Assembly: GCA_033239525.1 (NCBI GenBank)
Contig: BSYO01000038.1
Coordinates: 5,707,041-5,771,040 of the forward strand
Source of the DNA: Nepenthes gracilis
Lineage: Eukaryota; Streptophyta; Magnoliopsida; Caryophyllales; Nepenthaceae
Direction of reading: 5' to 3'
DNA length: 64,000 bases
Both the position numbers and the translations under genes were made by a program. Shown here one piece after another: positions 4,258 through 60,630 of this stretch (the stretch's first letter is position 1; the number at the start of each line of letters is the position of its first letter). The notes under the pieces are model-generated. The model ran no database searches. It saw only the letters and a list, made by a program, of their open reading frames with translations, and had not been told where the DNA came from.

Positions 4258-5616
4258 TATTTTTGTCCCGATACTCATCCATGCTTTTATTTTTATATTA
4301 CCTATGACTTGAGCATGTATATATATTAATTTAATATCTGATTTCTTAGTTTTTGATCGATTTTTACACCGAAACCCTAACCCCATGCCCAAATGCCTTC
4401 ACCCTCCGATTTTTGGGGCTTTTACGTAAATTGGCTCAAGAATTTTATTACCCATACCATGTATATGTTAATTTATCGATTGGATATCCAATTTGGTAGT
4501 TTTATGCAAAATTACGTTTGTCGGAACCCTAACCCACGTCCGGACCTTGTTTAACAAATTATTTTGAGTTTTATACATAATTTGACCTTATATAATGAAA
4601 AGCCATGTCTTGAATATGGTTACTTACCGATTAGGTGTCCCATTTTTCAAATTTTGTCCAATTTTATACATACGGGACCCTAAACCCATGCTCAGCCTGT
4701 TCACCAAAATTAATTGATACTTTTGCATGGTTCAATTTTCTTTTATGGATATTTAATCATATGTAATTGTATATACTCAATCATATATTTCAAAAATATT
4801 ATTGTGAACCGTTTGTGAATAAATTATCGTCTGAAAGCTCTAAAGTTACGTTTGTCAGATATGGTAAGGATTTCCTAATTGTTCCAAAATACCATGCAAA
4901 ATATGTATATATTTAAAGTCACGTGAAGACTTAAGCCCACAAGAAATGATTATTTGTATATATATATATATATATTAATTAAGATATGTATATATATAAA
5001 TGAAATACCACAATTTGATATATGTATGATTCATTTTTTTAAAGTGAGAACTTTGTGAAATAAGTTTGGTGGACTTTTCCTCAATAAATAAGAAATCATA
5101 AAACCTGGACCACAGATTTATATTTCAGAGGATAGTATCCTATGTCATGTCATTGATATTATAGTGGAAATTTAAGGATTACCCTGACTGTGTATTGTAG
5201 CGGATGATATTCCTTGGCATACTTTAGTATATTATTGTGAAAGAACGGGGACTGCATCTAGGCCACGAGGGACATGATTACTTATCGATTGGGTGTCCGA
5301 TTTTTCAAGTTTTGTCCAATTTTGTACATATGAGACCCTAAACCCATGCCCGACGTTGTTCACCTGAATTAATTGTTACTTTTGCATGATTCCATTTTGT
5401 TTAATGGGTATTTAATCATATGTAATTGTATATGCTCAATTATATATTATGATATATTATTGTAAACCATTTGTGAAGGAATTATCGTCCGAAAGCTCTA
5501 AAGTTACATTTGGCCAATGTGGTAAGGATTTCCTAATTGTTCTAAAGTATCATGTAATATGTATATATTTAAAGTCACGTGAAGACTTAAGCCTACAAGA
5601 AATAATAATATGGGGT
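4258..5616 (+). repeat. Two partial gypsy LTR fragments in tandem, joined to pol of element A
   Basis: The sequence from 4258 aligns by eye with the middle of LTRs A and B (bits such as GATACTCATCCATGC and ATGACTTGAGCATG). A block at about 4612-4960 recurs at about 5272-5610, about 660 bp downstream, covering the CCTAAACCCATGC and AAAGTCACGTGAAGACTTAA segments. At 5617 the LTR sequence stops abruptly and reverse-transcriptase coding sequence begins. The 5' LTR, primer site and gag of element A have thus been lost or rearranged. No gene is present. Confidence 0.6.
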
Positions 5617-8285: not shown

Positions 8286-8296
8286 TGGGGGAGAGT

Positions 8297-10341
8297 TGTG
8301 AGGTTATGGATTTTAAAATATAATAATTAGGAAATAATTAAATTAATATAATCAAAATTAGACTAAACACTTGTAGTGAATGTAGGAAATCAGGTTCCGA
8401 GAACATAGGAGTGATCAGTGAGGGGCGCTCGTTGGGCACCTTGGGCTGCGCCGCGAGGGCCCAAAGCAATGGCTGATGTGCCTGCTGGGGGATTGAGCAC
8501 CTAGGCAAGCACTAGAACCCGTGCTGGGCGCGCCGGTCCGCAATTTAAATCGAGCCACGTGGGTTTCAAGGTCATTCTTTCCAGTTTTTTGAGACAAAGA
8601 GAGAGAGAGCACGAAGAGAAAGAGAGAGAAGGAGGAATTCAAGGTTCTCGAGTCTAATTCCGAACTCAAACTAGTTAGAAAAGTTATAGATCAATCCGAG
8701 ATAAGTGTACTTATACCCTTTTCTCTCATTTTCTTGCACTTTCATTTCATTTTCTTCAAGTATCCTCATTCCGATACCTAATTAAATTGTTATTTCATAT
8801 TACCCATAATCTTAGAATGTAAATACCTCGATTTCATGTCTGATTTGTGAGATTTGTACAATTTTTGCATCCGATAAACCCTAATCATGCCCCTCTTCAA
8901 AATTTACCGAATTTCTTGTAAGTTTTACATAATTTGGCTTTAGAAATTGGAAACTGTAGCTTTGTGAATGTGGGCATCTTCATTTTTTGGTATTTGTTCA
9001 TATATATTATTATATGTTAATTTTAAAAAAAAAACCGAAGACATTATCAGACATGAATCGGGGTATTTATATGCATGTGCATTAACTATGTTATCTTGTA
9101 TATTCTCTAGAAATTTATATGCAATTGTGAAGGAACATTATTGTCCGAAAGTTTTAAAGTTGTGTTGGGCTCTCGGCGGTAAGAATTTCTATTTTTCTCC
9201 ATGCTTTATATCGATCATGCATGTAGCCTAAGTCATTAGGAAATGTAAACTTTCAAGAATTATACACATTATGAGAAGTGTAAGAAGAAAATTCCATAAT
9301 GTATTATGTTTGATGAATCGTTTTTTTGGTGCGAGAACAATATTTTATGAATAGATATAGAATTTTTCTAAGAATAAGAAAAGGTGAATTGGGCCCAGTA
9401 TTACATTTCAGAGCGTAGCATTCCCTAGAATGTCATACGATATTACTGTGGAAGCATGAGGACGGCCTCAAGGCCACGGGAGATATGGTGGCATATGTGA
9501 TACGACCCCGTATATCGGGTTAAAGGAATACCGCTCACCACAGGGTGTTGAACGGTATGGGTTGCGTCTTAGGATATATGGAAGCATACACATTCATTTC
9601 TTCGTTCGACCGTACCGTTAGCTAGTAAGGCTTATTGGCCCTGGTCTACGTGTTTAAATACAATTTCTGCATGTTTTGAAACCTAAAGAAAGAATAAGTA
9701 AAATGGGAAAGAGAAATGATTTTCGGAGATGTATTTATTCATGCTTCATGTTCAAGCATCATTATTCTTCCCTTATATCCCTCCCCTACTTTATTTTGTA
9801 TATACTACTTACTGCCTTGATTGTATTATACTTACTAAGTATTTAGCTTACCTTTGCTTCTTTCCTTCCTTTAGATTAGTACGCCCTCATGCCTAATGAG
9901 GCCGAGTAGAGCCTAGGAGTTGGATAGGCTGCATATCTTGAAGAAAAAGCTTAGTGGACTTAGTATTGTTATTTTGTTTCTGGGGGAGCTTTTTTGTATC
10001 ATTATTGATGGTTTTGTATGTTAATGTATGTATATGATGATGATGAGATACTTATAGTATAGTCTCCACTGTTATTGATGGATGTATGTGATTCTGCAGG
10101 TCTTTATGGTTTATCGTGAATTCCTAGTGAAATCTTGTCTGAGCCTACGTCGTAACCAAAGTTGTGATGTCAATGCCACATCTTTGCTATGACTGTTTGG
10201 ATCCTATGTGTCTTGTTGTTGATATCTATTGTGATTGTATGTTATACTATACAGGTATTTTGTGCAGGTTGTACTAGTTTGATAGCCATTTTACTACCCA
10301 AATTCTACCAGATTTTGGTTAGGAAAACGTGGTCTGTCACA
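8297..10341 (+). mobile_element. 3' LTR of gypsy element A
   Basis: Starts TGTGAGGTTATGG after the purine tract GTGGGGGAGAGT and ends GTCTGTCACA, so it has TG...CA termini. It holds a GA-rich block near 8588-8640, the shared LTR module near 9465-9535 (GGCCACGGGAG, then GACCCCGTATATCGGG) and a terminal block near 9890-9940. The next bases (10342 on) continue in the middle of LTR B, so A lies inside B's 5' LTR. The 5-mer after it, GTGAG, corresponds to GCGAG in B's intact 3' LTR. Confidence 0.85.
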
Positions 10342-27209: not shown

Positions 27210-27615
27210 CGTTTTGTTGAGGGGTGATGGTGTGAGGTTTTGGGTCTAAAAATATAATAAATATGAGGAAATTAACCTGATATTCATTAATACTAGACCT
27301 ATTGAATGTACGAGTATGCGTATTAGAAGGAAAATCAGGTTGTGAATTGCTGAAATGCTGCAGTAGTCCACGCCTGCTGTGCGCTCAAGCGCAGGCTCGA
27401 GCACAAAAAGCAGTGGCGCAAGCAGTAGGCCGCGCTTGTTGCGCGCTTGAGCAGTAAAATCCAGTAGCTCCCCAAACTGTTGAGCGCTAGTGCGCGCTCG
27501 AGCGGTAAAATCTAGTAGCTCCCCCGCCCGCTAAGTGCCTGTGCCGCTCGAGCGCGGGTCGGCAGGGAGGCTGCGCTCGCCGCTCGCTCGCCCGACGCTT
27601 GAGCACCTCAACGGG

Positions 27616-27623
27616 TATAAAAA
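27616..27623 (+). promoter_or_regulatory. TATA box of LTR F (5' copy)
   Basis: GGGTATAAAAAC, directly downstream of the CTCGAG-rich block. The 3' LTR has the same box at 34795-34802 in the same setting. Confidence 0.7.
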
Positions 27624-28718
27624 CAAGACCTGCTTCATATTTCTTTGATTTTCTCATTTCTAGAGGGTTTTTAGAGAGGAGGAGAGAGGAAGAGCGCCGG
27701 TTTTAGAGAGAGAAAGGAGGAGATTGAGCTGTAGAGTCCGAATCTGTCCAAGAGCCAGTTATAAAAGTGACAGCATGCGTCGAGGCAAGTATTCTCATAC
27801 TCACTAACTTTTCACTTTCGATATTTTTTGATTATTGTCGGGTATTTTCATCTCGATATCCATCCAAATCATGGAAAATGTGATACCCGTGACTTGAGAC
27901 CAAGGATTATGTAACTTATTATCCGATTTACTCACCGATCCGACCAGTGAAGTACCGTCAAATCCTAACCTACGAAAAATTGGGGGTTTTTCGTTTTCGC
28001 AGCTCATTTCATTAAATTGACCCCAAAATGTGAATCCCCACATCCCAAATGTGTTTATATGTCGGCTGCACGATCAATCTTGCACGTCTAGACCCGTTCG
28101 CAGTGTCCGGGCCCTTTTAAATAGGGCGCTGACACTGTTCACCCGAAATTGAAAGGTAAGTGTACATGCTTTATCTCTCTCCAATTGTGATGGAACTTAT
28201 GACTAAATGTTGTGTCAAATTGTAGGCTCTAAAATATGTAATTGTACACCAAGAGCAAGGGGATGCGTCCAGGAGGCTTCTAAGGTGGTGTTTAACAAAC
28301 TGAAGTAAGTACAATCAAACTCTTTTACGAGTTGAACTTATTGGTTGAAAGATCTAAGCTCTAAAAGAAAGAAAGGAACCGAACAAGTAAATGGAAGGGA
28401 ATCCACAAGTGTAAAGTGATGGATTTGGTCTCCCGATTGGAGACATGTGATGGGAATGTGATTTCCCGATTTGAGAATGTATATGGAAATGGTGGATTCC
28501 CTCTCAATGATTAATACTAATCTTAAAACTAGGACCACGGATCACAAGGGTAGTACCCTCTAGCTTACCATGTACATCATGGTGGGAACCCAAGGAATAC
28601 TCCGGCCACTCCTGGGGCGGGTGATGTTTAGGGTACACTTTAGGATGCTGCTGTGAAAGAACAAGGATTGCCCTGGTCCCCGGGGGATATGGAGCGATTG
28701 AGATGGCTGAGTGCTACA

Positions 28719-28840
28719 GGCCTAAAATATAGCCGTTGGTCGAATGATGCAGACCTAAAATGTAGCCGATGGTCGAGTGCTGCAAACCTAAAATGTAGCC
28801 GATGGTCGAGTACTGCAGACCTAAAATGTAGCAGTCCTTA
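28719..28840 (+). repeat. 33-bp tandem repeat, four units, in the 5' LTR of F
   Basis: CCTAAAAT recurs at 28721, 28754, 28787 and 28820, exactly 33 bp apart (unit contains GTAGCCGATGGTCGAGTGC). The 3' LTR has only two units, at 36072 and 36105. The short open frame through the repeats is incidental. Confidence 0.95.
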
Positions 28841-29691
28841 AAATGTGTGGCAGACAGATTTCTTTCATCGTCCTCTCACATCGTTGGTTAGTACGACTTA
28901 CAAGCTCGGGTCCGCAAAGATTGATGAAAGCAATGAAAATGAATGAACGTAACCAGAACAAACATGAGAACTAAAGGATTCGTGATACTCCCCCTCCTCT
29001 CATGCTTTCTTTATCCAAGTTATAGGATTCCCCTACCCAGTTAATATCTTTCCTGTAAATTGCTGTAATTAGTGATGTATGATTTTATTTGTTGGGCTGT
29101 ACGCTCACCCTTGCTGTATCTTTCAGATAAGAACACATTGATACCCGATGAGATAGAGTAGACCATAGAAATGTGATTGACAACTGATATTGCACGTAGG
29201 ACTTGGGGCTGGGACTTAGCAGATTTTGCGTATGAAACAGGAATTTTGGTCCTACTTTTATAAACTGTATAAAACATGTATGGTGATGATTGATGATGTT
29301 TAGCATGAATGAATGATGAATTAGTTTCTGCTGTATATTGTGGTTTTTATGCTGCCGCAGGTCCTTCTCATTGTGGTTATGATCGAGGTTCCTAGTTGGC
29401 ATCCTTCCCCACCGGCATTATATTGAAGTTATGATGTCGGTGCCGTCTCGGTTGATGCGGCGATTAGATCCTGTGTAGTGTGTTGAGCATTAGGACTTGT
29501 AGTTTTATTGTGGATGGTTGTAGATTGTTATGCAGGGTTGATTTACAGGTGTTTATATTTCAAAAAATGCTCGATTTACAAACAGAACTCTGCCCAATTT
29601 TCTATAAAAATTAATAATTTTAATTAGGAATACTAGTTTACTATTATCCTTGACGGAGGTTATTTAAGGAGAATAACTCGGTCCATCACAG

Positions 29692-30920: not shown

Positions 30921-33900
30921 GGGTAAAGATTTTGCGGTGTCTGCTAGCAAGGCCAGAGCATCAGAAGAGGTGGTGGAAGGTATACTTCCAATTTGTGATA
31001 TTTTTTGCTTAGTACTTTTTGACTCTGGGTCCACGCACTCCTTTATTTCTCCTCGGCTGGCTTGTTATATTACACCCTCCCTCGTGACCCTTGATTTTTC
31101 TTTGGTTATATCGACACCCACGGGGTCCTCTATTATGACCGATGTGTCCTATCCGGGGTGTATTGTGGAGGTGAAGGGACTTCTTTTGCCCGTTGATTTG
31201 ATTCTTCTAGATATGCATGATTTTGATGTTATCTTGGGTATGAATTGGCTGTCTAAGTATCATGCAACTATTGATTGTTTCTACAAAAGCGTAGACTTTG
31301 CTATTCCGGATTGCCAACCCTTTTATATTCAAGGAGTTCAAAGGGTGGAGCCATCTAGTTTTATTTCTACTCTACAGGTTCGTCATTTATTGAATAGTGG
31401 GTGTGAAGCCTTTTTGGCTTATGTTAGTATGGTGGAAAGTCGAGATTTGTCTGTAAAAGACATTCCGATGGTGTGTGAATTCGAGGACGTGTTTCCCAAC
31501 AAATTGTCTGCCCTGCTCCCACATCTTGAGATTGAATTTGGGATTGATCTCATGCCGGGATCGGCACCCATATCAAAAGCCCCCTACTGCATGGCTCCTG
31601 TTGAGTTGAAGGAGTTGAAACAGTAGCTACAAGACTTGCTTGATACGGGTTTCATTAGACCCAATGTATCGCCATGGGGCGCTCCGGTCCTATTCGTCAA
31701 AAAGAAGGATGGGGCTTTGAGGTTATGTATAGACTACCATGAGTTGAATAAAATTAGAATCAAGACAAGTATCCTCTGCCGCGGATCGATGACTTCTTTC
31801 ACCAATTGCAGGGACCCTTAGTATATTCCAAGATTGACCTTCAGTCGGGATATCATAAGCTTCGTATTGAGCAGGAGGATATTGCATAAACGGCTTTCCA
31901 AACGAGGTATGGTCACTATGAATTTTTGGTGATACCATTCGGGTTGACTACTGCTCCAGCCGTGTTTATGGACCTGATGAACCAGGTCTTCCAGCCATTC
32001 TTGGATAAGTTTGTTGTGGTTTTCATTAATGATATTCTGATTTACTCCAAAGATCATGCCGAACATCAAGGGCACCTGAGAATTGTGCTGTAGTCTCTTC
32101 GGGAACATCAGTTGTTCGTGAAGTTAAAGAAGTGTGAGTTTTGGCTTGACAGGGTGGTGTTCTTAGGCCATGTAATTTCTCATGGAGGCATCTTGGTGGA
32201 CCCACAGAAAATTGAAGTGGTGGTCAATTGGAGTCGGCCGATAACCATGTCTAAAGTTTGAAGCTTTTGGGGGATGGCTAGCTGTTCTCGTCGTTTTGTG
32301 GAGAATTTTTCTCAGATAGCCTTGCCCCTCACTCGTCTGACAAAGAAGGAGGTAAGTTTCGCCTGGACCGAGGAGTGTAACAAAAGCTTCCAAGAATTGA
32401 AGGATCGGTTGACAACTACCCCGATTCTAACTCTTCCTGATAATTTCGGTGGGTTTGAGGTGTATTGCGATGCATCTAAAGTGGGACTCAGATGTGTTCT
32501 TATGCAAGGGGAAGAGTAGTTGCTTATAGGTCTCGACAGTTGAAGACTCATGGGAAAAACTATCCGACCCGTGACTTAGAATTGGCCGCGGTAGTTTTTG
32601 CTTTGAAAATCTGGAGACACTATCTTTATGGTGAGAAATTTCTGGTATACTCCGACCACAAGAGCCTCAAGTATTTGTTCTCACAGAAGGAGCTAAATAT
32701 GAGGCAGCGGTGATGGATTGAATTTCTAAAGGACTACGATTGTGAGATTCAGTATCGACCGGGGAAAGCGAATGTGGTCGCAGATGCCTCGAGTCACTGA
32801 ACCTGTTTGGTGCCAACCATGCAGATTAAGCAGATAGAGTTGCTAGACTTTTTGAAATCTTGCCATATCCAGCGCTACACTAAGGGTAACCGGATGATGC
32901 TATCCTTTCTGTAGGTACAGCCTGAGATCCTTCAGAGGATCAAGGAAGGGCAGGTGAGTGACCCATTTCTGATGGATATTGTGAGAAACCTCAGTAGAGA
33001 CTCTCGAGCTGATTTTAGTGTGTATGTAGATGGAGTTTTGAGATTTCAAGAGAGGCTATGTGTACCAGATGTTAAGGAACAAAAAGAAGAAATAATGAAG
33101 GAGGCACACAGGACTCGATACACGATTCACCCCGGTATAAACAAGATGTATCAGGATTTGTGGAAAATATTCTGGTGGAGAAACATGCGATGAGAAATCG
33201 TGGCTTAAGTTAATCGATGTCTCGTCTGTCAGCAGCTGAATGCTGAGAGGAGAAAGCCTTCTGGATTATTACAGCCCCTACCCATTCCCAGCTAGAAGTG
33301 GGAGGAGATCTCGATGGACTTCGTGTCAGGATTGCCTAGAACTCTGAAGAATCATGATGCGACCTGGGTCATTGTTAACTAATTGACGAAATCTGCTCAT
33401 TTTATAGCCATTCGGACCACGTACTCCCACGATCGTCTGGCATAGTTGTACATCAACGAGATCGTGAGACTGCATGGTGTGCCAGCATCAATTGTGTCCG
33501 ATCGCAATTCACAGTTCGTCTCTAAATTTTGGGAGAGCTTGCATCGAGAGTTAGGGATGAACCTAAAGTTTAGTGTGGCGCATCATCCTCAGACGGATGG
33601 CAAGTCGGAGTGGACGATCCAGATACTAGAAGATATGCTTTGGGCTTCAGTGTTGGAGTTCCATGGGAATTGGGATGCTTTTCTAGCGCTGGCCGAGTTC
33701 GCTTACAACAACAGTTTCCAAGCGAGAATTGGAATAGCTCCCTTTGAGGCACTTTATGGTAGGAAGTGTCGATCTCCCATCCATTGGGAGGAGACTGGGG
33801 ATAGACGGTTGTTGGCCCCGGATGTTATTCGAGAGACATCGGAAAAGGTAGCAGTGGTTGTAGAAAAGTTGAAAGTCGTCTAGAGCCGACAGAAAAGTTA

Positions 33901-34376
33901 TGCTGATCAAAGGAGATCCGAGCTTAGATTCGAGGTTGGAGACTTCGTCTTCCTTAAGGTCTCGCCGTGGAAGGGGATTTCCAGGTTTGGCGTAAAAGGG
34001 AAGCTGAAGGCCCGTTTCATTGGACCGTTTGAGGTTCTTAAGTGAGTTGGCGAGGTGGCATACCGTCTAGCTTTGCCACCGAGTCTGGCCGAGGTGTACA
34101 ACGTCTTCCATGTTTCCATGTTAAGGAAGTACGTGTATGATCCATCTCACGGGATTGATTATGGTCCTTTGGCTATCGATGAGGATTTGGCTTATGTAGA
34201 GGAACCGGTAGAAATCTTAGACCAGAAGGACCAAATTTTGTGCTCCAAGACGATTCCTCTAGTGAAAGTTTTATGAAGGAGCCACTCCCGTGAGGAGGCA
34301 ACATGGGAAAGAGAGGACAGAATCCGGGAAAAGTATCCCCATCTATTTCGAGGTATATAACTTATTCAAGTTTTGG
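30921..34376 (+). pseudogene. Element F pol: protease, RT, RNase H, integrase, chromodomain-like tail
   Basis: Protease: LFDSGSTHSFISP at about 31016-31055, with a 229-codon open stretch to 31626. [23 protein letters not shown], then [12 protein letters not shown] near 32020-32045, where the usual DD is ND. RNase H: CDASKVGL near 32465 and [18 protein letters not shown] near 32660. Integrase: HPGINKMYQDLW and CLVCQQL zinc site, MDFVSGLP, LHGVPASIVSDR, GRKCRSPIHW. The tail EEATWEREDRIREKYPHLF is like Tekay/Del chromodomains. A one-base deletion near 31770 and many stops make it dead. Confidence 0.95.
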
Positions 34377-34420
34377 ATTCATTAAATTTTGGGACGAAAT
34401 TTCTGTAAGTGGGGGAGAGT

Positions 34421-36973
34421 TGTGAGGTTTCGGGTCTAAAAATATAACAAATACGAGGAAATCAATGTGATGTAATTAATACTAGACCTATTGAATGTAT
34501 GAGTATGTGTATCAGAAGAAAAATCGGGTTGTAAATTGCTGAAATGTTTTCAGCAGACCGCGCCTGCTGTGCGCTCGAGCGCAAAACGTACTGGAGCAAG
34601 CTGCAGGCCGAGCCTACTGCGTGCTCGAGCTGAGCTCAAGCGGTAAAATCAAGTAGCTCCCCCGCCCGCTGAGAGCTAGTGCGCGCTCGAGCGGTAAAAT
34701 CCAGTAGCTCCCCCGCCTGCTGAGCACTTGTGCAAGCTCGAGCGTGGGCCAGCAGAGAGGCCACACTCGCCCGGCGCTCGAGCGCCCCGACGGGTATAAA
34801 AACGCAACCTGCTTTGCACTTCTTTAGCTTTTCTCATTTCCAGAGGGCTTTTGGAGAGGAGAAGAGAGGAAGAGCGCCAGTTTTAGAGAAAGAAAGGAGG
34901 AGATCAAGCCGTAGAGTCCGAATCTGCCCGGGAGCCAGTTATAAAAGTCATAGCACGCGTCGAAGCAAGTGTTCTCATACTCACTAAGTTTTCTCTTTCA
35001 ATGTTTTTTGGTTATTATCGGGTATTTTCATCTCGATACCTACCCAAACCATGGAAAATGTGATATCTGTGACTTGAGACCAAGGACTATGTAACTTATT
35101 ATCCGATTTACTCATCGATCCGACCTGTGGAGTACCGTCAAACCCTAACCTATGGGAAATTGGGGGTTTTCTATTTCCGCACCTCCTTTCGTTAAATTGA
35201 CCCCAAAATGTGAATCCCCACGTCCCAAATGTGTATATGTCGGCTGCGCAATCGATCTCGCACATCTCGACCCGTTCGTGGCGTTTGGGCCCTTTAAATT
35301 GTGTGCCGACACTGTTCACCGAGACAAAAAGGGGAAATTTGCATGTTATACCTTCATAAAATGTTGAGATGACCTTGAAATATGAATCCCCACATCCCAA
35401 AAGTAAGTATGTGTTGATCGGACGTCTGATTCCGTAAAATTTTACCCGTTCAAGGCGTCCGAGCCCTCTAAAAGTGGCCTAACACTGTTCACCCAAAATT
35501 GGAAGGTAAGTGTACATGCTTTAGCTCTCTACAATTGTGATGGAACTTATGACTAAATGTTGTGTCAAATTATAAACTCTAAAATGTGTAACTGTGCACT
35601 GGGAGCAAGGGGATACGTCCCGGAGGCTTTTAAGGTGGTATTTAACCAACGAAGGTAAGTATAATCAATCTCTTTTATGAGTTGAAGTTATTGGTTGAAA
35701 GATCTAAGCTCCAAATGAAAGAAAGGAACCGAATGAGTAAATGGAAGGAAATCCACAAGTGTAAAGTGATGGATCTGGTCTCCCGGTTGGAGACATGTGA
35801 TGGGAATGTGATTTTTCGGTTTTAGAATGTATATGGTAATGGTGGATTCCCCTTCAAAGATTAAGACTAATCTTGAAACTAGGACCACGGATCATAGGAG
35901 TAGTACTCTGTGGCCTACCATGTACATCACGGTGAGAACTCAAGGAATACTTTGGCCCCTCCTAGGGGCGGATGATATTCAGGGTACACTTTAGGATGCT
36001 GCTGTGAAAGAACGAGGATTGCCCTAGTCTCCGGGGGATATAGGGCGATTGAGATGGCCGATTACTGCAGGCCTAAAATGTAGTCGATGGTCGAGTGCTG
36101 CAGACCTAAAATGTAGCCGGCCTTAGAATGTGTGGCAGACACATTCCTTTCCTCGTCCTCTCGCATTGTTAGTTAGTACGAACTACTAGCCCGGGTTGTA
36201 AAGATTAAAGAAAGTAGCGAAAATAAATGAACGTAACCAGAACAAACATGTGAACTAAATGATTCCCGATGCTCCCCCTCCTCTCATGCTTTCTTTATCC
36301 AAGTTATATGATTCCCCTACCCAGCTACTATCTTTCCTGTAAATTGTTGTAGTTAGTGATGTATGACTTTACCTGTTAGGCTAGACGCTCACCCTTGCTA
36401 TATCTTTCAGATGAGAATACATTGATGCCCGATGAGACAGAGTAGACCATAGAAGTGTGATTGATAGCTGATTTTCATGCAGGACTCGGGGTTGGGACTT
36501 AGCTAATTTTGCGTATGAAACAACAATTTTGGTCCTACTTTTGTAAACTGTATAAAACATGTATGGTGATGATTGATGATGTTTAGTATGAATGAATGAT
36601 GGATTAGTTTTCACTATATATTGTGGTTTTTATGCTTCCGCAGGTCCTTCTCATTGTGGTTATGATCAAGGTTACTAGTTGGCATCCTTACCCACCGACA
36701 TTATACTGGAGTTATGATGTCGGTGCCGTCTCGATTGATGCGGTGATTATATCCTATGTAGTGTGTTGAGCATTAAGACTTGTAGTTTTATTGTAGATGG
36801 CTGTAGATTGTTATATAGGGTTGATTTACAAGTGTTTGTATTTTGGCAAACGCTCGATTTACAAATAGAACTCTACCCAATTTTCTACAGAAATTAATAA
36901 TTTTAATGAGGAATACTAGTTTACTATTATCTTTAACGGAGGTTATTTAAGGAGAATAACCCGATCTGCCATT
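34421..36973 (+). repeat. 3' LTR of element F
   Basis: Starts TGTGAGGTTTCGGG after GTGGGGGAGAGT. Same order of parts as the 5' LTR: CTCGAG block 34560-34790, TATA box 34795-34802, GA-rich leader, two (not four) 33-bp units at 36071-36125. The last bases differ from the 5' LTR, which ends CCATCACA: here GATCTGCCATT runs straight into the TRIM. Confidence 0.9.
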
Positions 36974-44542: not shown

Positions 44543-45509
44543 CTTTTTTTGGTAAGTAAATTGCATTAAAAAATAAGAAAGAAAATACAACACCTATATT
44601 CTATTCCAAGTGTTTTGTCAACTTGGAAGCAGAACATAGTAGCAAGGGCAGACCCTTAAAACCATGACATAAGACATGAAAGCAAGAGAACAAACAATAC
44701 AGCAAAGATCAATGAGTAAAATTTCGCCTACTCATCCTTCTAAACTGCAGGATGGTAACATGCGCCACACATAGAACAAAAATTCAAAACGAAATTTAGG
44801 CCTCCCATACCGGGAACATATGAGAGAAGGGACCGATTTGCCCATAGGATCCATGCCAGCTGGCCAATACCAGGAAAGTGAGAGAGAAGGAACCAGTTTT
44901 CCCATAAGATCCATGCATAAAATCCCAGAACATACACCTTGGATAAAGGCAGATAAAGACCATGGTCTTCACTGTAGTGCTTTAGCCTTTTACACCTCGG
45001 CACTTTGCATATATCACGGCCAAAAGCTGGAATCTTGTTCGATTGCATCTCGGTACTTGCCCAACTTCTCAACCCATCTCAGCCAAAGGCTAAAATCTCG
45101 TACGATTACACCTCGGCTCTTGCCCGACTTCTCAACCCAAAAGCCACTCAAACAATTAATCCTGGAAAGCAGATCATAAAATATCTCTTGCAATCTTAGG
45201 ACGGAATTTACGGGATCTCTGGTATTTGGATTTCTTTCCAGATTCACATTACCTAGATGTCAACAAAGACATCTGCTGAAAATTCTTTCCTGTAGGGGAT
45301 TTCTTTCCAGCATGGCACAGCTGCTAAAAGTTCAGCACAAAACCAAGACAGCAGGAATCATCTCCCACTCATAAGCAACTGAAGTCAAGAAAGCAATCCA
45401 CTCAATCGGCTGAAAGACAGCAAATCACTAGCAAAATAGGACACACGACAGCAGCAGCTAGCAGCCACTTGGAGCAAGGTGAAGACTCCAAAAATGTCTC
45501 CTATGTATC
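44527..45509 (-). mobile_element. Family N insert (44543-45493) with 16-bp target duplication
   Basis: ATGTCTCCCATGTATC at 44527-44542 and the same sequence with one change at 45494-45509. A T run plus GGTAAGTAAATT marks the minus-strand 3' end. The hairpin TTCCAAGT/ACTTGGAA lies at 44604-44611 and 44621-44628. The body repeats itself: AGAGAAGG...CCCATA-GATCCATGC about 60 bp apart near 44822-44918, and a CTCGGY...CTTGCCCRACTTCTCAACCCA unit twice near 45048-45140. Non-coding. Confidence 0.9.
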
Positions 45510-52556: not shown

Positions 52557-53547
52557 ATCATTGTGATGGAATACCTCCCAAATTCGTCATTAACTTAATC
52601 TTAATAATAAATAATCTACTAGGGCTGATCTAATAAATACATGCCAGCGTACATAAGATCCATAACACAATACCACAACCTCATGGCCTTGACAATGAAC
52701 CAAAACATTTTATCTTGCTGGACCTAAATCAGGAAGATGCCTATAAATACCTTCAGACCTGCAGAAACATTTTGATAGTCTAGATATGCTAGGTTTCAAC
52801 CAAAACATACAACAGCTAATCTAATTTCATAATAATACATACATCCAACCCTTCAACTTGTACGGGAATAACTAACATATAAAAATACAAAAGATGATCA
52901 GAAGACATCCACAAGACATAAAACTAAGCACTAATTATTCATTCCTACTCGTTGGGTATAAACTTGTGTGGATTATCTAAAGGGTTAATAGAAATAGTAA
53001 AGAAGTTAAATACTCTGTAATGCATATATACATATCAAAAAGCATGCATACTTTATACTTAAAATATAACAGTACATATCAGAAGGAACAAGGATGAACG
53101 AATAGTCATAAAACATGATCTGAAAATACTTTTATAATATATTCCAAATTTTTTATTTTATTATTTCATTATCTTACTCATCAAATTGGCTAAAAACTTG
53201 CTTTTCTTTGGGCGACTAGAGTTAGTAAGCCTTACTAGTTAAATGAGCGGTCAATCGAAACCTAGATAATATTTACTTCTACATAATCAAAAGCCTTCTC
53301 CTCTTATTCAAGACACGGCAGGCCATCTACATATAACACTATAGACGGGGCTATAGCCATAAGCAATCCTTAGTAGATAACGATCTTTCACTATAATATA
53401 TTAAGACATATCAAGATATACTATATGTTGAACTTTTCTTAGTCCAATTTCTTAACTTTTTAGGTAATTCTATATTTAACTTCATACATTCTTGGTTCTA
53501 AACCTTTTGGAGAATAGTTCACAATTTCTTAACATAATTGCAGAATA

Positions 53548-53931
53548 TGTTACGAACTCAGCATCCTGTTTATTTTTCCCGTTCCCTGTCCCCCGTTTTC
53601 CGTTTGTTTAATCTGTTACTACCTGTGGAGGGTTTCCCGTTCCCGTTTGCCCCATTACCCTATTTCCCGTATATATTGTCTGACACGGTATAATGAAAGG
53701 GGGAGAATTATTGCCCAACACCCTCTATCACGCTCTCTCTCTATCTCTCCCTATTCTCTCCTCTCTCGTTCTGTTCTTCCCTCTCTCATTTGTTTCTCTT
53801 CCTCTAACTGCTCCCCTTTTCGTCCTTCGTCTGCTCCAATCGCCGTTTCCCTCCGCCAGAACTTCCCTCGCCGTTCACTCCAGTCGCCACCGACGATGTC
53901 GTCGCCAGCCACGATCGAGAGGCACGCATCA
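53548..53931 (+). repeat. 5' LTR of the gene-capturing element
   Basis: 384 bp, TGTTACG...GCATCA. It contains CCCGTT-type repeats at the start, a TATA-like GTATATATT at 53669-53677 and an alternative TATAATG at 53689-53695. A CT-rich leader follows, then an ATG at 53896 whose frame leaves the LTR into the interior. No difference from the 3' LTR is seen. Confidence 0.95.
53669..53677 (+). promoter_or_regulatory. Probable TATA box of the gene-capturing element
   Basis: GTATATATT about 220 bp upstream of the LTR-encoded ATG. The same box recurs in the 3' LTR at 57829-57837, where it could drive read-out into flanking DNA. Confidence 0.5.
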
Positions 53932-54279
53932 TTTGGTGCTCTCATTGAGACCAAGGCGGAGGCGAACGACGGACGAGCTGTCGCTGCGCGCGAAGAGGCT
54001 ATGGCCGAATGGGCCAGTGCGCTGAAGGATCTCCGAAGCGCTGTCGACCGATTGGACACCCAACTATCCACCATGGCTTCAGTAGCAGCACAAATATGCT
54101 CGCCACGCACCGACACCAGCCAGTCACTCCTCCGACTCGAGCGCGACACTGAACGGTCAGTGACCTCTTCACCTTCTGTGATTTCTTCGCTTCTCCACCA
54201 CCCGGTTCCTCGAATACTCGTCCCTCGCTTCCCCGTCGTCTTCAACTTCATCACCATATTCGGCTTCCCCCTTCGTTAA
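53896..54279 (+). CDS. Gag-like N-terminal ORF starting inside the LTR
   Basis: 128 codons from ATG 53896: [40 protein letters not shown] and [15 protein letters not shown]. The charged, helical, heptad-like middle resembles the N-terminus of plant gypsy gag proteins. The first 12 residues are encoded by the LTR. From 54182 another frame is open in parallel, and the protein sense seems to move into it ([19 protein letters not shown]). A frameshift, a splice or a one-base indel would join the two. The same ATG in the 3' LTR reads out into flanking DNA. Confidence 0.6.
53933..53952 (+). promoter_or_regulatory. Candidate primer-binding site of the gene-capturing element
   Basis: TTGGTGCTCTCATTGAGA starts two bases after the LTR. 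It contains the TGG expected opposite a tRNA CCA end, but it is not the initiator-Met type used by elements A, B, F and the copia. I cannot name the tRNA. Confidence 0.6.
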
Positions 54280-54310
54280 TCCCTCATTAATTTCAAACTC
54301 ACCAGCAGTT

Positions 54311-57300
54311 GTGGTTCCCACAACTGAAGGGCTTCGAGCCTCCCTCACTGAGCCTTTGCCGATTCTAACTCAAATCGAGAAACCCCATTCACATGCGTTT
54401 CCTGATTCTCAATTCGACGAGCCACCTACCACAATATTCCAGCGAACCTTCACTGAAATTTCTCCCTCTGATTTCAAAATCACTAAGCCACAAACTGTCA
54501 CAAATCGGCCAAAATACCTTACACCACTCAAGAAATTAAACCTGATAGACCTAGATTGGGAGGGTGAAGGTGGTCAGATTTTCGTTCCACTTACAGAAGC
54601 TGGCTCCAATGAGTATAAATTCCCAACAGAACCGTTTCCAGAAACGGTTCCCCAGCCGCTTGCTGTGTTGGAGGATGAACACTTGCTACCCTCAGCTGTG
54701 GATACTTCCAGCATTCAACGTGTGAGAAAAATTGCTAATTCCCTAGGCCACCGGTTCAACCAGGAGGCCTTCCTAGAGGCTGTGGACCTTGCGCAACTGG
54801 TGGAGAATGGGGCAAGCAACGGTAGCCTTGCCAGAGTACCTCAGACTTCTTCGTTAGATAATGAAGATGTTAAAGGAACGGATGGGGGTGCGCAGAAACA
54901 TGGAACTGTTTTCTTGGATCCAGAACCTCAGGCAATTGAGGTTTGGCCTAAGAAACTACAACCATTTGATGGCAACGGGCAGGAATTGAACCCACTTGAT
55001 GACAGGACTAGAGACTTGGGGCCACTTGAAAGTCAACCCACTGAATTTCTCAAGGAGTTGCAGGGGCACCATACTGTTTTAAGGGAGTGCATTGAGCAGC
55101 TCACATCATTTGAAGCCTCGAGGGCAACTCTTGTATCATATTTAAGAGAGGCTCTCCATGAGCAGGAGTTTAAGCTGGACCAATATCGTAATCAACTCCA
55201 GGCTGCTCCGTTGCAGTCAGAACGGGCCGCCAATATATGCCAACAGTTGCTGAATTCCAGCAACGTGCACTTGCTAGATGATCAAGGTTTGCAAGAGCTG
55301 AGCACCACCCATCCAGGCGGCGAACAAATATCTCTGCTATACACAAAACAGCTGCCTTCTCCTGAGAAATTTGCTGCCATGGAAGACGATGACCCACAGA
55401 AGTCTGCAGCTGCTGCAGTGGCAGCCAAGCTTACTGCATCCACGTCCTCTGCCCAGATGCTCACACATGTTCAATCTTCCCTTACACAAGAGGGTGTCAT
55501 TAGCAGCGTGGTAGAAGAATCCCCAAGTGATATTCCTTCCGAAAAGCGACCTAAGCTTGAAAATGACCAATCTTATGTGCCACCGTCTGCTCAGCTTCCT
55601 CCATTACCATTATTTCCATACCCTGATGCAACTCAACAGAATGCTCCCACAAGTAATCAGCAGCCAACTCCAGATGAGCAGCTGCCTCCGCCTTCCTCTT
55701 CTCTGCCACTGCCACTGCTACCGCCCATGCCACAAGTAATCAAGGCTTTGAAGTTGTTGGTTGACGAGTGGTGGGTTGGTATCGTGCTAAATTCTGGACC
55801 ACCTACAAGTGTACTTCCAGCATCTACACCACTTGGACATCTTAAGATGGGTAAAACAGCTCACTACCTTGATGCTGCTACTGCCTCATCATTGATGGAT
55901 AAGCAAGGAAGAAAACGTCTACCAATCACACGTTTCTCTGAAAGGGCTGTTTCAATGTTGCTGCTGTCTTTGTCCTTCACATGGAAGGCGAGAGGAGATC
56001 ATCACCGTAATGTATGCAGCGTACCTGTCTTAGCACCAGGAACAAATCCTGCTAGTGCTGCCAGGTGTGGAATGAACATTGTGACTGTTGGGTCGGAGAC
56101 TAAGGGGCACATTAGTATTGACGAATCGAGAACAGCTGCTGTAGCCAACAAGGACAACCCGCCTACTCTCATGGTTACTTATCTTCCCACTCAAGGAGTT
56201 TATGAAGAAGCTGGGGTGCCCATGGAAAACATTCTTTATCTTGGTGGACCAAATATAGCCTTTCAAATCTACAACAACGAATGCACAAATGTTCGAATCC
56301 GCGGAGCTGGAATTGTGGCAGCCCTCACCAACGAAAGTTCTACTAGCAAATCTGATTATTTCTCTCACTGTACATCGGAGATGATATTCATTACTCATTT
56401 GGTGGCCGAAGATCCTGCGAAGCTTGCAAGGCCCTTGTTGGCTGATACATATGTAACCCTGTTGAAAGGTCGGAATGCAGGGTATGGCCAAATGCTAGCC
56501 AAGGGTGAACTGAACCTGGATATGCTAGCCAAGGGTGAACTGAACCTGGATATGGATGATTGCATCAGTGGAAAACGGCAAGGGATGATTCAAGGAATTT
56601 ACGAAGAAGATTGTGGTCAAATTTGTTTGGAGCCATTCACTTCAACTCCCATTGGATCTCCTTGTGGTTGTGTTTTACCAATGAGAGTTCGACTTCTTCT
56701 GAGTATAGCTGTTTATGCTCTCTTTCCCGAGGTTAATGAACTGGAGATTGAAGTTGCAGCAGGCACATATCTTAAACATAGTCAATTGCAAATTGTGGGT
56801 GCAACTACTGATAGCCAAAATCAGGAAAGGACAATTGTGGATCTCAACTTGGTCCCACTGGGCGAGAACTTTGATAATACCACTGCAACACTAATTTTTG
56901 AGAGACTTTTGCGGAAGAAGGGGCAAAGCCTGGCACCCAAAAGATTACCTCCTGGCGTGTTCTTTCCATTAATGAAAGCTACAGATGCTAAACTGGCCAG
57001 CGCATCCTTGGCATCTGCACTGCTATGTGAAGATGAAACACTGGATCCCAAAAAGGCAAAGGGAAAGATAATAGTTTGCCTTAGAGGGATAAATGCAAGA
57101 GTTGACAAGGGAATGCAATGTGCTTTGGCTGGAGCTGTGGGTATGGTTCTGGCAAACGACCAAGATAATGGAAATGAACTCATTGCCGATGCACATTTCC
57201 TACCTGCTTCACATATCAATTACAGTGATGGTGTTTATGTCTACTCAAATATCAACTCAACTAAGTCCCCTAAAGCCTACATTACTTATACAGATACAAA

Positions 57301-57853
57301 GTTGGGCACTAAACCTGCTCCTTTCATGGCAGCGTTTTCGTCCAAAGGACCGAACACGGTTACGCCAGAAATTCTCAAGCCTGATGTCACTGCACCAGAA
57401 GTAATTGTCATTGCAGCATTTACTGAAGCACAAGGGCCAACAAACGAACCATTTGATACTCGCAGAGTTAAATTTAACTCTCTCTCAGGCACTTCAATGT
57501 CATGGAATGCAGGCTGCGGTGTTGGCTTAATAGTATTAAAGCAACCTCTCTTGCATTTAACGGAAGCAATTTCTGGCTACAACGAACATGTGATTTGGGA
57601 TGAGTTTTTACTAAAGTCGGTATTCGGCGACCTCACAGTGGCTAAATCACATCACGCCTTTCTCTTGATCAACCTTGAGGACAAGGTTGTTTTGATGGGG
57701 GCGGCAATGTTACGAACTCAGCATCCTGTTTATTTTTCCCGTTCCCTGTCCCCCGTTTTCCGTTTGTTTAATCTGTTACTACCTGTGGAGGGTTTCCCGT
57801 TCCCGTTTGCCCCATTACCCTATTTCCCGTATATATTGTCTGACACGGTATAA
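54311..57853 (+). CDS. 1,180-codon chimeric ORF of captured gene fragments
   Basis: Open from 54182 to TAA at 57853. The stated start is a GTG; the first in-frame ATG is codon 357 (55379), so the first third needs a start upstream. By residue: 1-244 gag-like or unknown; 245-475 RPRD1/CID protein tail; 476-558 unassigned; 559-634 glycine decarboxylase P-protein; 635-764 NAD glycerol-3-phosphate dehydrogenase; 766-868 ALE2-like receptor ectodomain; 869-1064 subtilase; 1065-1132 retroelement tail; 1133-1180 LTR. Every piece is in sense and in frame. No complete enzyme is encoded. Expression or function is unknown. Confidence 0.75.
55043..55735 (+). pseudogene. Captured fragment 1: RPRD1-like CID protein, C-terminal part
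   Basis: Residues 245-475 of the chimera. [35 protein letters not shown] and [13 protein letters not shown] form the coiled coil that follows the CID (ENTH/VHS-like, RNA polymerase II CTD-binding) domain in plant RPRD1/CREPT-type proteins. [29 protein letters not shown] and a Pro-rich tail follow as in those proteins. The CID domain itself is absent. It may begin somewhat upstream (around residue 205), but that stretch is less clear. The family assignment is from memory of the motif order. Confidence 0.75.
55985..56212 (+). pseudogene. Captured fragment 2: glycine decarboxylase P-protein segment
   Basis: Residues 559-634. [59 protein letters not shown] and GVYEE match the conserved C-terminal half of mitochondrial glycine dehydrogenase (decarboxylating), which uses pyridoxal phosphate in photorespiration. 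Donor-typical residues have changed (for example SAHG to LAPG, PSTHG to LPTQG). The PLP-lysine segment is not included, so no activity is expected. Confidence 0.85.
56213..56602 (+). pseudogene. Captured fragment 3: cytosolic NAD glycerol-3-phosphate dehydrogenase
   Basis: Residues 635-764. [60 protein letters not shown] and [20 protein letters not shown] are characteristic of plant GPDHC-type glycerol-3-phosphate dehydrogenase. An internal stretch between RIRGA and GIVAAL is missing (roughly 35-40 residues in the family), and the N-terminal NAD-binding fold is absent. A 30-bp in-frame tandem duplication lies at 56492-56551. Confidence 0.85.
56492..56551 (+). repeat. 30-bp in-frame tandem duplication in captured fragment 3
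   Basis: Two identical 30-bp units, 56492-56521 and 56522-56551 (each begins ATGCTAGCCAAGGGTG), repeat [10 protein letters not shown] once more than in the donor family. Confidence 0.98.
56606..56914 (+). pseudogene. Captured fragment 4: ALE2-like receptor kinase ectodomain
   Basis: Residues 766-868. [80 protein letters not shown] and FERLLRKK fit the Cys-containing extracellular region of ALE2-type receptor-like kinases, which act at the plasma membrane in protoderm development. The signal peptide, transmembrane segment and kinase domain are absent. Confidence 0.8.
56915..57502 (+). pseudogene. Captured fragment 5: subtilisin-like protease, PA domain to catalytic Ser
   Basis: Residues 869-1064. 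[67 protein letters not shown] and [11 protein letters not shown] match plant SBT5-type subtilases. The fragment ends at SLSGTSMS, which holds the nucleophilic Ser, and the chimera switches to unrelated sequence right after it. The catalytic Asp and His lie upstream in the family and are absent; PGV-I is changed to [11 protein letters not shown]. No proteolysis is expected. Confidence 0.9.
57503..57707 (+). other. Retroelement tail and polypurine tract before the 3' LTR
   Basis: Residues 1065-1132. [20 protein letters not shown] and [17 protein letters not shown] resemble the last residues of gypsy polyproteins, where a LEDKV-type motif often precedes the polypurine tract. The tract GATGGGGGCGGCAA (57694-57707) abuts the LTR. 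This is probably what remains of the ancestral element's pol end. Confidence 0.55.
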
Positions 57854-58091
57854 TGAAAGGGGGAGAATTATTGCCCAACACCCTCTATCACGCTCTCTCT
57901 CTATCTCTCCCTATTCTCTCCTCTCTCGTTCTGTTCTTCCCTCTCTCATTTGTTTCTCTTCCTCTAACTGCTCCCCTTTTCGTCCTTCGTCTGCTCCAAT
58001 CGCCGTTTCCCTCCGCCAGAACTTCCCTCGCCGTTCACTCCAGTCGCCACCGACGATGTCGTCGCCAGCCACGATCGAGAGGCACGCATCA
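57708..58091 (+). repeat. 3' LTR of the gene-capturing element
   Basis: 384 bp, identical by eye to 53548-53931. The chimeric ORF continues 49 codons into it and ends at 57853. Transcripts presumably terminate here. Confidence 0.95.
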
Positions 58092-58132
58092 GAATATCCC
58101 TTCATAATTCTTTTTCATAAGGCTTACACATT

Positions 58133-60630
58133 TTTACTATGACTACCCCAAATGTTTCAAATGTAAAACGACCGTCAGACTAATACAAATCTGTACAATA
58201 CCCTATACAACATATATCTCAACAACAAACACATACAAGATTCAAAATTATGCCACAATATCGGTAGATCCGACACCAACCTAAAAATACGACGTCGGAC
58301 CTTTAGTAAGAAAGATGCCTACAAAAGTATCAATCTAATATATACACACATATCTAATAATATTGCGGAAGTAAAAATACATCCCTAACAAACTTCCTTG
58401 AACCTACACAATGTGCAATATTCTACTTTACTTCCATAAAATAATTCAGTATAAAATAATAATTCCATCCTTGATCAAACTTAACATCGGCAGTTTTAAA
58501 TATCACAAGATATCACACGGGCTAATAATATTGCCTAAAAATCTATAATACATCAAAAACCATATCCAAAAATCAAACTAACTAATTTATAATAAGTAAA
58601 ATGACCTAAACCTATCCAAAAAGAATAATACCTAAATATTAGAACCAACAAGTATAAACTCTTCCAAATCTTTGATCTAGCTCACTGGGCAATAACTCAT
58701 ACATCTCTTGTTCACCTGAAGGTTAATAAAATAGTAAAAAAGTGAGTTAAATACTCAATAAGATATAAATATAAAAAAGAATAAATGCTATATACTTCAA
58801 AATAAATCAAGGGAATGGAATAAGATTATAATGCATATACAACATAAAAAATGATCAAATAGTATTTTCGAAACATATTTAATTTCTTCACATTTTACAT
58901 CTGATTCTTTTAGGTTCTAAAACATGTAAAAATTTTTTTATTATTTAGAAATTAGGGCTAGTAAGCGTTACCAACTAACATAACGTTTAATCGATATCTG
59001 GATTGTATTTAGTCTACATAATCAAAGGGTATAGCCTCCTTATTTACATCCCATGAGTAGGATAGTGCTACTTATTATCTCCCGGTAGATGGGACCTGAA
59101 TCATACAGTAATACGTATTCAGACAACGATCTACACTATAATATATTAAGGTATGCGAGGAAATTATAGTAAGGTATATGAGGAAATACTATCTTCTGAA
59201 ATAAAAACTTTTGGTCTAAATTTTTTGATTTCTTTTCATATTTCATATTGGAATTCTACACAAATATTCATAATCATTTTTCCTTAATTTTGTCACTCCA
59301 AGAGAAAATACCAAAATATATAATAGATTATGAGTTTTAATTTTTTGATATAGATTCATAATTTTATATTCTTGAAAATACATATACATATTTCATATTC
59401 CTTTAAACTTATATAGATATATATTTTTATATTCATATAGACTTAAGTCTTAAATTTGAACAGATACTTTTTCATGAAAAAAAATATAAAGATAATCATA
59501 ACTTTAATATAAATAAACCGTAAATCATAATTCTTAAATTCCAATTATGTAGAAACTTTGGACATGTTTGTCGTTATAAAATAGGAACGAAATACTAAAA
59601 AATGCATATAATTTATGATACATTTAATTCCCAAAATCTCAAATACCAATATAAAATCATCAAATGGCCAGTAAAATATACATGCATGTACAAAATATAT
59701 AGATGGGATATATAAAAATAACATACATGTTAGTAAAATTTTTAAATAGTAGTCAAATAATATTAGACACGAAATCATACTAAAGATAGGGATAGAGGAT
59801 ATTTGACTCAACTTTATACTTTACAGATCAGAAAAAAGGATGTTCCAAAATATCTAAATCGGGCACTCTCTCCTAACGGCGTGGCCCCTTCTCTCCCCTC
59901 CCTTTCTCTCTCCTACCACATCCCATTCTACCTCTCTCCTTCACCGACAGCAGCACCAGCAAGGTCGACAATGATAACCACAACGGCATCACCCAGCAAC
60001 GGTGGCACGGTGGCGAGCGAAGGTGTAGATAACCGGCGACGACTTCCTTTCTCTGCATGCCTCTTTTTCACCCATTTTTTTCTAATTCACCCAATTTCAC
60101 CCAAAATTGACACATATAACCGCAAAATTAACATCTATAAAGAGAATGGAAGGATTTACTTGCTTCAATTATACAGATTTTCTCCTATAGTGGTGGTGAA
60201 TGAACTTTAGTTGTTTTGGTTTTGGCTCACGATTTCTCTCTCTACTCACAATGATGCACGAAATGGAGCGTACCATCACAATAAGGGCTTCACTAGTTTT
60301 CATTCCTGTCATTGGGACTTCCGGCAACGGCGGCAGTGCAATACCCTGCTCCGGCCACCCTCTCTCTCCTCTCTTCTCCCCTCTTTTCTTTCTCTCTCCC
60401 CGAAACCCTATATATATATATATTATTCTTTTCTCTTTTTATGTTTTTTTATTTCAAAATCTAATCGATGCACGGATAACAGTATAAACGTGCTATAGGC
60501 ACCACTCCATAATTTTGATCATTCCTCAAAATATTATAATATTTAATTAATTTTTACCATACCTATATTACCCAAAAAATAGTAAATAATTTTAATTAAA
60601 TTAGATAAAATTTTGAAATATTACATTTAC
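58133..60630 (-). mobile_element. Solo LTR, family C copy 3 (58138-60625)
   Basis: A perfect 5-bp duplication TTTAC (58133-58137 and 60626-60630). The minus strand starts TGTAATATTTC and ends GTCATA, a probable GTCACA with one transition. Length is 2,488 bp. It is inserted in LTR D. It carries the family C GA/CT-rich block (59870-60060 and 60355-60410) and an AT simple repeat at 60410-60424. The 135-residue open frame at 59803-60210 lies in this block and is not a gene. Confidence 0.9.

What the first reader, a model, noticed from the sequence alone, without database searches (positions are those of the whole stretch)
53548..58091. A young LTR element carrying fragments of at least five unrelated plant genes
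Seen: perfect 5-bp target duplication, two 384-bp LTRs with no visible mismatch, no retroelement enzymes, and an interior with recognisable pieces of an RPRD1-like protein, glycine decarboxylase P-protein, glycerol-3-phosphate dehydrogenase, an ALE2-like receptor and a subtilase, all in sense. Known: plant LTR elements rarely capture host genes (maize Bs1 is the classic case). Inference: repeated RNA-level template switching built a multi-donor Pack-LTR element that has moved very recently. All other elements here are visibly old, which makes its integrity stand out.
Basis: partly seen in the sequence, partly recalled or inferred. Interest (0 to 1): 0.95.

Follow-up and report, generated by a model that had tools for sequence, protein, structure and literature searches.

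The report
Jumping element built from host genes
A recently inserted jumping DNA element in the pitcher plant Nepenthes gracilis carries pieces of at least six unrelated plant genes in one long open reading frame, and related gene models elsewhere in that genome carry other combinations, which suggests a lineage that keeps collecting and reshuffling its host's coding sequences.

Summary
Confirmed and extended. The element (53548-58091) has identical 384-bp LTRs and a GAATA target duplication and no recognised retroelement enzyme. It carries sense pieces of six host genes: RPRD1/CID, a PPR protein (via relatives), glycine decarboxylase P, GPDH, ALE2 and subtilase SBT5.3. The host is Nepenthes gracilis. 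New: (1) all 8 identified stretches lie in one stop-free 1,223-codon frame. (2) Seven other N. gracilis gene models share parts of the mosaic, six of them at least two donor pieces, with other genes attached (RPAP3-like TPR, ABCC transporter, lysyl-tRNA synthetase). (3) GPDH and ALE2 look nested in an older decarboxylase piece. (4) Identity to donors is graded, 98.5 to 85.1%, suggesting stepwise capture. Best reading: a non-autonomous, Bs1-like LTR element growing by repeated template switching onto spliced mRNAs. Not shown: LTRs around the relatives, donor introns, expression, an autonomous partner; the genome search did not complete in 16 tries. Bs1 has three donors; a maize survey found no element with more than one standard gene. 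New variant of a known kind.

The parts
53543..53547 (.). 5' target-site duplication GAATA
53548..53931 (+). 5' LTR, 384 bp, TG..CA, identical to the 3' LTR; TATATAT at 53670-53676
53932..53952 (+). presumed primer-binding region directly after the LTR; primer tRNA not identified, no self-priming complement of 9 nt or more in the LTR
   Evidence: sequence; self-complement search; assignment is inference
53896..54279 (+). short ORF starting at an ATG inside the LTR, frame 1, possible gag-like start (inference); overlaps the main frame by about 100 nt with a frame change
   Evidence: no Pfam match above cut-off
54182..57853 (+). stop-free frame of 1,223 codons carrying all eight identified stretches; first in-frame ATG at 55379 (codon 400); runs into the 3' LTR
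54710..54967 (+). backbone stretch (residues 177-262) shared with N. gracilis Nepgr_006027; origin unknown
55043..55729 (+). RPRD1-like (CID protein) piece, residues 288-516, 96.5% to Nepgr_027520
55736..55981 (+). PPR-protein piece plus an unassigned stretch, shared with Nepgr_007431, 021306, 004208, 001337
55988..56209 (+). glycine decarboxylase P-protein piece, residues 603-676
56216..56593 (+). cytosolic glycerol-3-phosphate dehydrogenase piece, residues 679-804, 85.1% to Nepgr_009991; lacks 41 codons (123 bp, in frame) at 56299/56300
56492..56551 (+). 30-bp tandem duplication (in frame) within the GPDH piece
56597..56608 (+). IYEE stub read as resumed glycine decarboxylase between GPDH and ALE2 (inference from a very short match)
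56612..56920 (+). ALE2 receptor extracellular-domain piece, residues 811-913
   Evidence: PF23180 2.9e-39; 92.9% to Nepgr_027751 over residues 815-913
56921..57502 (+). subtilase SBT5.3 piece (PA domain up to the GTSMS region), residues 914-1107, 98.5% to Nepgr_014395
57501..57521 (+). possible 7-codon remnant of the decarboxylase rear seen in Nepgr_008669, in another frame (weak, E 0.95)
57524..57628 (+). 3' backbone, 35 residues, 88.6% to Nepgr_008669; origin unknown
57694..57707 (+). purine-rich tract abutting the 3' LTR (presumed polypurine tract); the LEDKV stretch just upstream resembles the end of Ty3/gypsy pol as recalled
   Evidence: sequence; motif scan found no second LEDK in the window; assignment is inference
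57708..58091 (+). 3' LTR, 384 bp
58092..58096 (.). 3' target-site duplication GAATA

Best explanation
This is a young, non-autonomous LTR retrotransposon whose interior is a mosaic of host coding sequence. Inferred mechanism: an element RNA is packaged with host mRNAs in particles made by an autonomous partner; reverse transcriptase jumps from the element RNA to a spliced host mRNA and back to the element RNA, leaving an exonic sense patch; repeated rounds add and replace patches. Shown: LTRs, target duplication, six donors (one through relatives), one shared frame, shared donor order in other N. gracilis gene models, graded identity to donors. Inferred: RNA level, template switching, helper in trans, and the capture order: a PPR-decarboxylase core, then GPDH and ALE2 within the decarboxylase piece, then RPRD1 upstream and SBT5.3 downstream in the line leading to this copy.
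For: Identical LTRs plus target duplication. 8 of 8 identified stretches sense and in one frame. Of the 347 proteins listed by the three protein searches (all 111 hits, 120 of 301, 120 of 2,230, some of them repeats), 7 carry two or more of the eight stretches and all 7 are N. gracilis, one being this locus. The PPR-X-GDC order is shared by Nepgr_007431, 021306, 004208 and 001337; GPDH-ALE2 by 007431, 008669 and 021307. In Nepgr_008669 decarboxylase sequence resumes after ALE2 and is followed by the same 3' backbone as here. On 99 ALE2 columns the four chimeras group together (95/94 support), beside the Nepgr_027751 gene (91/90), with three residues seen in none of the four ALE2 genes compared. 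Identity to donors 98.5 / 96.5 / 92.9 / 85.1%. No intron seen in the 687-, 582- and 309-bp pieces; SBT5.3/5.4-like genes in grape carry 5-10 introns.
Against: No other copy of the LTR was seen: none in the rest of the window, and the assembly search did not complete (16 tries). The relatives are known only as predicted proteins, so their LTRs are unseen and some parts may be gene-model fusions. The primer-binding site and autonomous partner are not identified. No N. gracilis donor gene was found for the PPR and decarboxylase pieces.
Confidence: 0.83

Rival explanations
1. An addition to the main reading: the long open frame is kept by selection on the element. A gag-like/host fusion protein, or simply a long ORF that protects the RNA from nonsense-mediated decay, is needed, so only in-frame captures persist.
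For: 8 of 8 identified stretches share a frame; if the seven relative frames were random and independent the chance is (1/3)^7, about 1 in 2,200 (my arithmetic), and the 123- and 30-bp indels are also multiples of three. No stop in 1,223 codons.
Against: Only 29 amino-acid changes could be placed on the element's line in four pieces; with 4.3% of non-silent mutations making stops, no stop among 29 has chance 0.28, so point mutation gives no support. The main frame has no ATG before codon 400, the 5' ORF is in another frame, and a possible decarboxylase remnant is out of frame. Indels in coding repeats are often multiples of three anyway.
Confidence: 0.4
2. DNA-level assembly: a host chimeric gene or duplicated genomic exons were trapped between two LTRs, by insertion or recombination, and then mobilised.
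For: Possible in principle; the donors' genomic structure was not seen, so introns could not be checked.
Against: Six donors, all sense and coding, with no intron seen in pieces up to 687 bp; nested order with return to decarboxylase sequence in a relative; exact LTRs and target duplication.
Confidence: 0.07
3. The chimeras began as a host retrogene family in N. gracilis that now serves the plant, and this LTR copy is a side product.
For: Seven further annotated gene models share parts of the mosaic; in some an apparently host-like portion is attached (ABCG in 007431; DUF26 in 021306 and an oxidoreductase in 001337).
Against: This copy is a clean LTR insertion; the eight models lie on contigs of six different lengths and differ in content; Nepgr_008669 has the same 3' backbone as this element; the host-like ends may be gene-model read-through.
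Confidence: 0.08
4. Assembly artefact joining unrelated sequences.
For: Only one assembly was seen; the published male N. gracilis assembly was made from Oxford Nanopore reads with Hi-C scaffolding (PMC12244726, passages), and I assume but did not show that the window is from it.
Against: Identical LTRs, target duplication, an unbroken 3.7-kb frame, and the same internal donor order in gene models on other contigs.
Confidence: 0.02

Closest known systems
Bs1 of maize (LTR retroelement with transduced host genes)
   Same: LTR element with segments of several host genes and a chimeric gene that is transcribed and translated (review PMC13317346, passages). That Bs1 is small, non-autonomous and carries a hybrid ORF with its pieces in sense is recalled. 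The 2010 Bs1 paper PMC2899935 is not held; the 2001 paper was not tried
   Different: Bs1 has three donors (proton ATPase, xylan endohydrolase, beta-1,3-glucanase); here six in one element and nine across the gene models counted, with relatives showing apparent gain, nesting and replacement. Expression is unknown here
LTR-captured or retroduplicated genes of rice, sorghum, maize and pepper
   Same: Host gene sequence inside LTR elements; in pepper about 72% of retroduplicated NLRs sat in elements without gag or pol coding potential (PMC5664825, passages)
   Different: In maize 425 intact elements had gene fragments and, under the conditions used, none had fragments of more than one standard nuclear gene (PMC2774510, passages). 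The pepper authors, working on six plant genomes, note two or three genes inside single LTR elements, so two or three is not unprecedented
Pack-MULEs and gene-capturing Helitrons
   Same: Mosaics of host fragments; stepwise capture is described for maize Helitrons (title and abstract start of PMC3288121, search listing)
   Different: Those are DNA transposons (recalled: often with introns and pieces in both orientations); this one has LTRs, sense pieces only and no introns seen
Chimeric retrogenes by LINE template jumps (rice blast fungus)
   Same: Copies of different cellular transcripts fused to each other (PMC2104539, title and abstract start, search listing)
   Different: LINE-made and tripartite; here an LTR element with an apparently growing mosaic

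Membership tests
LTR retrotransposon | Direct LTRs with TG..CA ends and target-site duplication | tested here: met
   384/384 identical, GAATA both sides
LTR retrotransposon | Primer-binding site and polypurine tract at the inner LTR edges | tested here: inconclusive
   Purine-rich tract 57694-57707 present by eye; candidate primer site at 53932 not matched to a tRNA
LTR retrotransposon | Further copies with the same LTR / autonomous partner | not tested
   The genome search 'own' did not answer in 16 tries; none elsewhere in the window
Non-autonomous element | No gag-pol enzymes | tested here: met
   Pfam on the 1,223-codon ORF and three unassigned stretches
Bs1-type transducing LTR element | Pieces of more than one host gene | tested here: met
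   Six donors, the PPR one through relatives
Bs1-type transducing LTR element | Pieces fused into one open frame | tested here: met
   8 of 8 identified stretches in one frame; first ATG only at codon 400
Bs1-type transducing LTR element | Transcribed and translated | not testable with these tools
   no expression data
Bs1-type transducing LTR element | Homology to the Bs1 LTR or backbone | not tested
   no Bs1 sequence fetched; no kinship claimed
Retroduplicated (RNA-level) capture | Introns of the donor removed | tested here: inconclusive
   No intron seen in 687-, 582- and 309-bp pieces; donor gene structures not available; grape SBT5.3/5.4-like genes have 5-10 introns
Pack-MULE / Pack-CACTA / Helitron | Terminal inverted repeats (Pack-MULE, Pack-CACTA) or Helitron ends | tested here: not met
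   No inverted repeat of 20 nt or more (seed 12) in 53000-58600; Helitron ends were not searched for, but the ends are LTRs with a target duplication

The most novel reading that the evidence does not exclude
N. gracilis hosts a lineage of LTR elements that acts as a serial exon collector: each round of copying can patch another host mRNA in frame into a growing fusion ORF, so that the lineage continually produces new multi-domain proteins from at least nine host genes, with the open frame kept by selection on the element or by use in the plant.
Probability: 0.4. Interest if true: 0.88.

Novelty: new variant of a known kind. Interest (0 to 1): 0.74.

Why it matters
In the papers seen here, host-gene capture by plant LTR elements is mostly described gene by gene. 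Here one lineage appears to show successive states: a PPR-decarboxylase core, GPDH and ALE2 nested inside it, alternative extensions (RPAP3-like TPR; ABCC plus lysyl-tRNA synthetase), and a recent copy with RPRD1 and SBT5.3. If the relatives prove to be LTR copies, the steps of retroelement-driven exon shuffling can be read in order, junction homologies measured, and the question whether such elements keep a coding frame can be tested by comparing copies.

Tried and rejected
Other copies in the window: none by blastn or tblastn. Self-priming: the sequence after the 5' LTR has no complement of 9 nt or more in the LTRs; its reverse-complement matches (9-11 nt) lie in the interior. tRNA and Rfam scans of the window: nothing. 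Gag identity of the 5' ORF, of residues 1-287 and of the 3' 116 residues: no Pfam match above cut-off. Point-mutation argument for a selected frame: computed and found weak, P = 0.28. The sister proteins' own in-frame joins were not counted as evidence for a selected frame, because gene predictors favour open frames. Host-like portions attached to sisters (ABCG in Nepgr_007431, oxidoreductase in 001337, DUF26 in 021306, membrane-protein-like part in 006027) were not counted as captured, because they may be gene-model read-through. Literature: for Nepenthes, nothing on gene capture by retroelements among the titles listed (14 of 14 listed; 15 of 160; 8 of 114); for multi-gene LTR capture. The library holds open-licence papers only.

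The tree failed on an empty row. One search used 8 rows; three further ALE2 proteins that I meant to add (P0240, P0278, P0245) were left out because the anchor string was not matched in them.

Full report
What is there. The window belongs to Nepenthes gracilis: the annotated protein Nepgr_032307 is 100% identical to the element's ORF over residues 190-1146. The element spans 53548-58091. Its two 384-bp LTRs are identical, start TG and end CA, and are flanked by GAATA on both sides. At 1.3e-8 or 7e-9 substitutions per site per year the absence of any difference gives a 95% upper age of 0.30 or 0.56 My. The other repeats of 120 bp or more found within the window are 64-87% identical except one pair at 94%; they were not sorted into LTR pairs, but nothing else there looks as young.

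The interior. A single stop-free frame of 1,223 codons runs from 54182 to 57853; the other five frames over the same span hold 43-89 stops each. Eight stretches can be identified and all are sense and in this frame: a backbone shared with Nepgr_006027; RPRD1/CID; PPR plus an unassigned stretch; glycine decarboxylase P; GPDH; ALE2; subtilase SBT5.3; and a 3' backbone shared with Nepgr_008669. The PPR label rests on relatives, not on a match of the ORF itself. Identity to the nearest N. gracilis gene found is 98.5% for SBT5.3 (3 of 194 differ), 96.5% for RPRD1 (8 of 227), 92.9% for ALE2 (7 of 99) and 85.1% for GPDH (17 of 114). A nearer paralogue may have been missed in this polyploid species (ploidy recalled), so these are minimum identities. 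No decarboxylase or PPR donor gene of N. gracilis was seen; candidates scored were capped near 8,000 per search, and only 120 of 301 and 120 of 2,230 hits were listed.

The family. Of the 347 proteins listed by the three protein searches, 7 carry two or more of the eight stretches, and all 7 are N. gracilis gene models, one of them this locus. Nepgr_004208 and 001337 have PPR-X-GDC followed by ABC-transporter C and lysyl-tRNA synthetase pieces (PDB matches for 004208; Pfam and alignment to 004208 for 001337, with the synthetase below Pfam's cut-off). Nepgr_021306 and 021307 are neighbouring locus tags on a contig of the same length and may be one copy split in two; they read PPR-X-GDC-GPDH and GPDH-ALE2-TPR, the TPR matching the PDB chain of plant At1g56440 and RPAP3 best. 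Nepgr_007431 reads PPR-X-GDC-GPDH-ALE2-TPR and then an ABCG-type transporter; its decarboxylase part lacks 25 residues present here. Nepgr_008669 reads GPDH-ALE2, then decarboxylase again (75% over 52 residues to P0105, a P-protein from an unnamed source), then the same 3' backbone as this element. Nepgr_006027 shares only the 5' backbone. The eight models lie on contigs of six different lengths. The ALE2 parts of the four chimeras that carry one group together with 95/94 support beside Nepgr_027751 (91/90) and share three residues seen in none of the four ALE2 genes compared, which points to one capture (midpoint-rooted, 99 columns).

Order of events (inference). A PPR-decarboxylase core is the widest shared unit. 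GPDH sits between decarboxylase residues on its left (VYEE) and a resumed IYEE on its right; ALE2 follows, and in Nepgr_008669 decarboxylase resumes after it. This is what a jump to an mRNA and back to the element template would leave. In the line to this copy, SBT5.3 replaced the rear of ALE2 and nearly all of the decarboxylase rear (a possible 7-codon remnant stays, out of frame, E 0.95), and RPRD1 was joined upstream of PPR. The identity ranking fits, with SBT5.3 youngest.

RNA or DNA level. The pieces are all sense and coding; 687, 582 and 309 bp run without an intron. Grape genes like SBT5.3/5.4 have 5-10 introns (PMC5122586, passages). This favours spliced templates, but the Nepenthes donor loci could not be read, so it is not proved.

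Is the frame selected? For: 8 of 8 stretches in one frame, chance about 1 in 2,200 if the seven relative frames were random and independent (my arithmetic), and 123- and 30-bp indels in frame. Against: no ATG in the frame before codon 400, a different frame at the 5' end, a possible out-of-frame remnant near the 3' end, and a stop-free record that 29 placed substitutions would leave by chance with P = 0.28. I hold this at 0.4.

Comparison. Bs1 of maize carries segments of three host genes, in a chimeric gene that is transcribed and translated (review PMC13317346, passages). A maize survey found 425 LTR elements with gene fragments and, under its conditions, none with more than one standard nuclear gene (PMC2774510, passages). 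Rice and sorghum have 672 and 1,343 captured genes (PMC3726574, passages). The pepper authors met two or three genes in single LTR elements (PMC5664825, passages). Six donors in one young element with a family of partial relatives goes beyond what I found, within a library limited to open-licence papers.

Limits. The own-genome search was asked 16 times and never answered, so copy number, the LTRs of relatives, donor introns and an autonomous partner remain open. The primer-binding site and the Ty3/gypsy affiliation (purine tract and LEDKV-like end, from recall) are tentative.

Noticed in passing
44775-45179 (+): The annotated protein Nepgr_032307 takes its first exon from here, about 9 kb upstream of the element (by eye); this looks like a gene-model artefact.
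   Followed up: partly
53896-54279 vs 54182-57853: An ORF starting at an ATG inside the 5' LTR overlaps the main frame by about 100 nt in a different frame; a frameshift, a small intron or a sequencing error could explain it.
   Followed up: no
Nepgr_006027 (P0043): Shares the 5' backbone (residues 177-262) and is joined to a membrane-protein-like part; possibly yet another capture.
   Followed up: partly
5611-8363 and 31718-34487: Two related repeats 72.5% identical with integrase-like ORFs at 7172-7732 and 33446-33883 (recognised by eye as decayed Ty3/gypsy).
   Followed up: no
27221-29683 and 34412-36966: A large direct repeat at 82-84% identity, matched in two blocks; nature not determined.
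   Followed up: no
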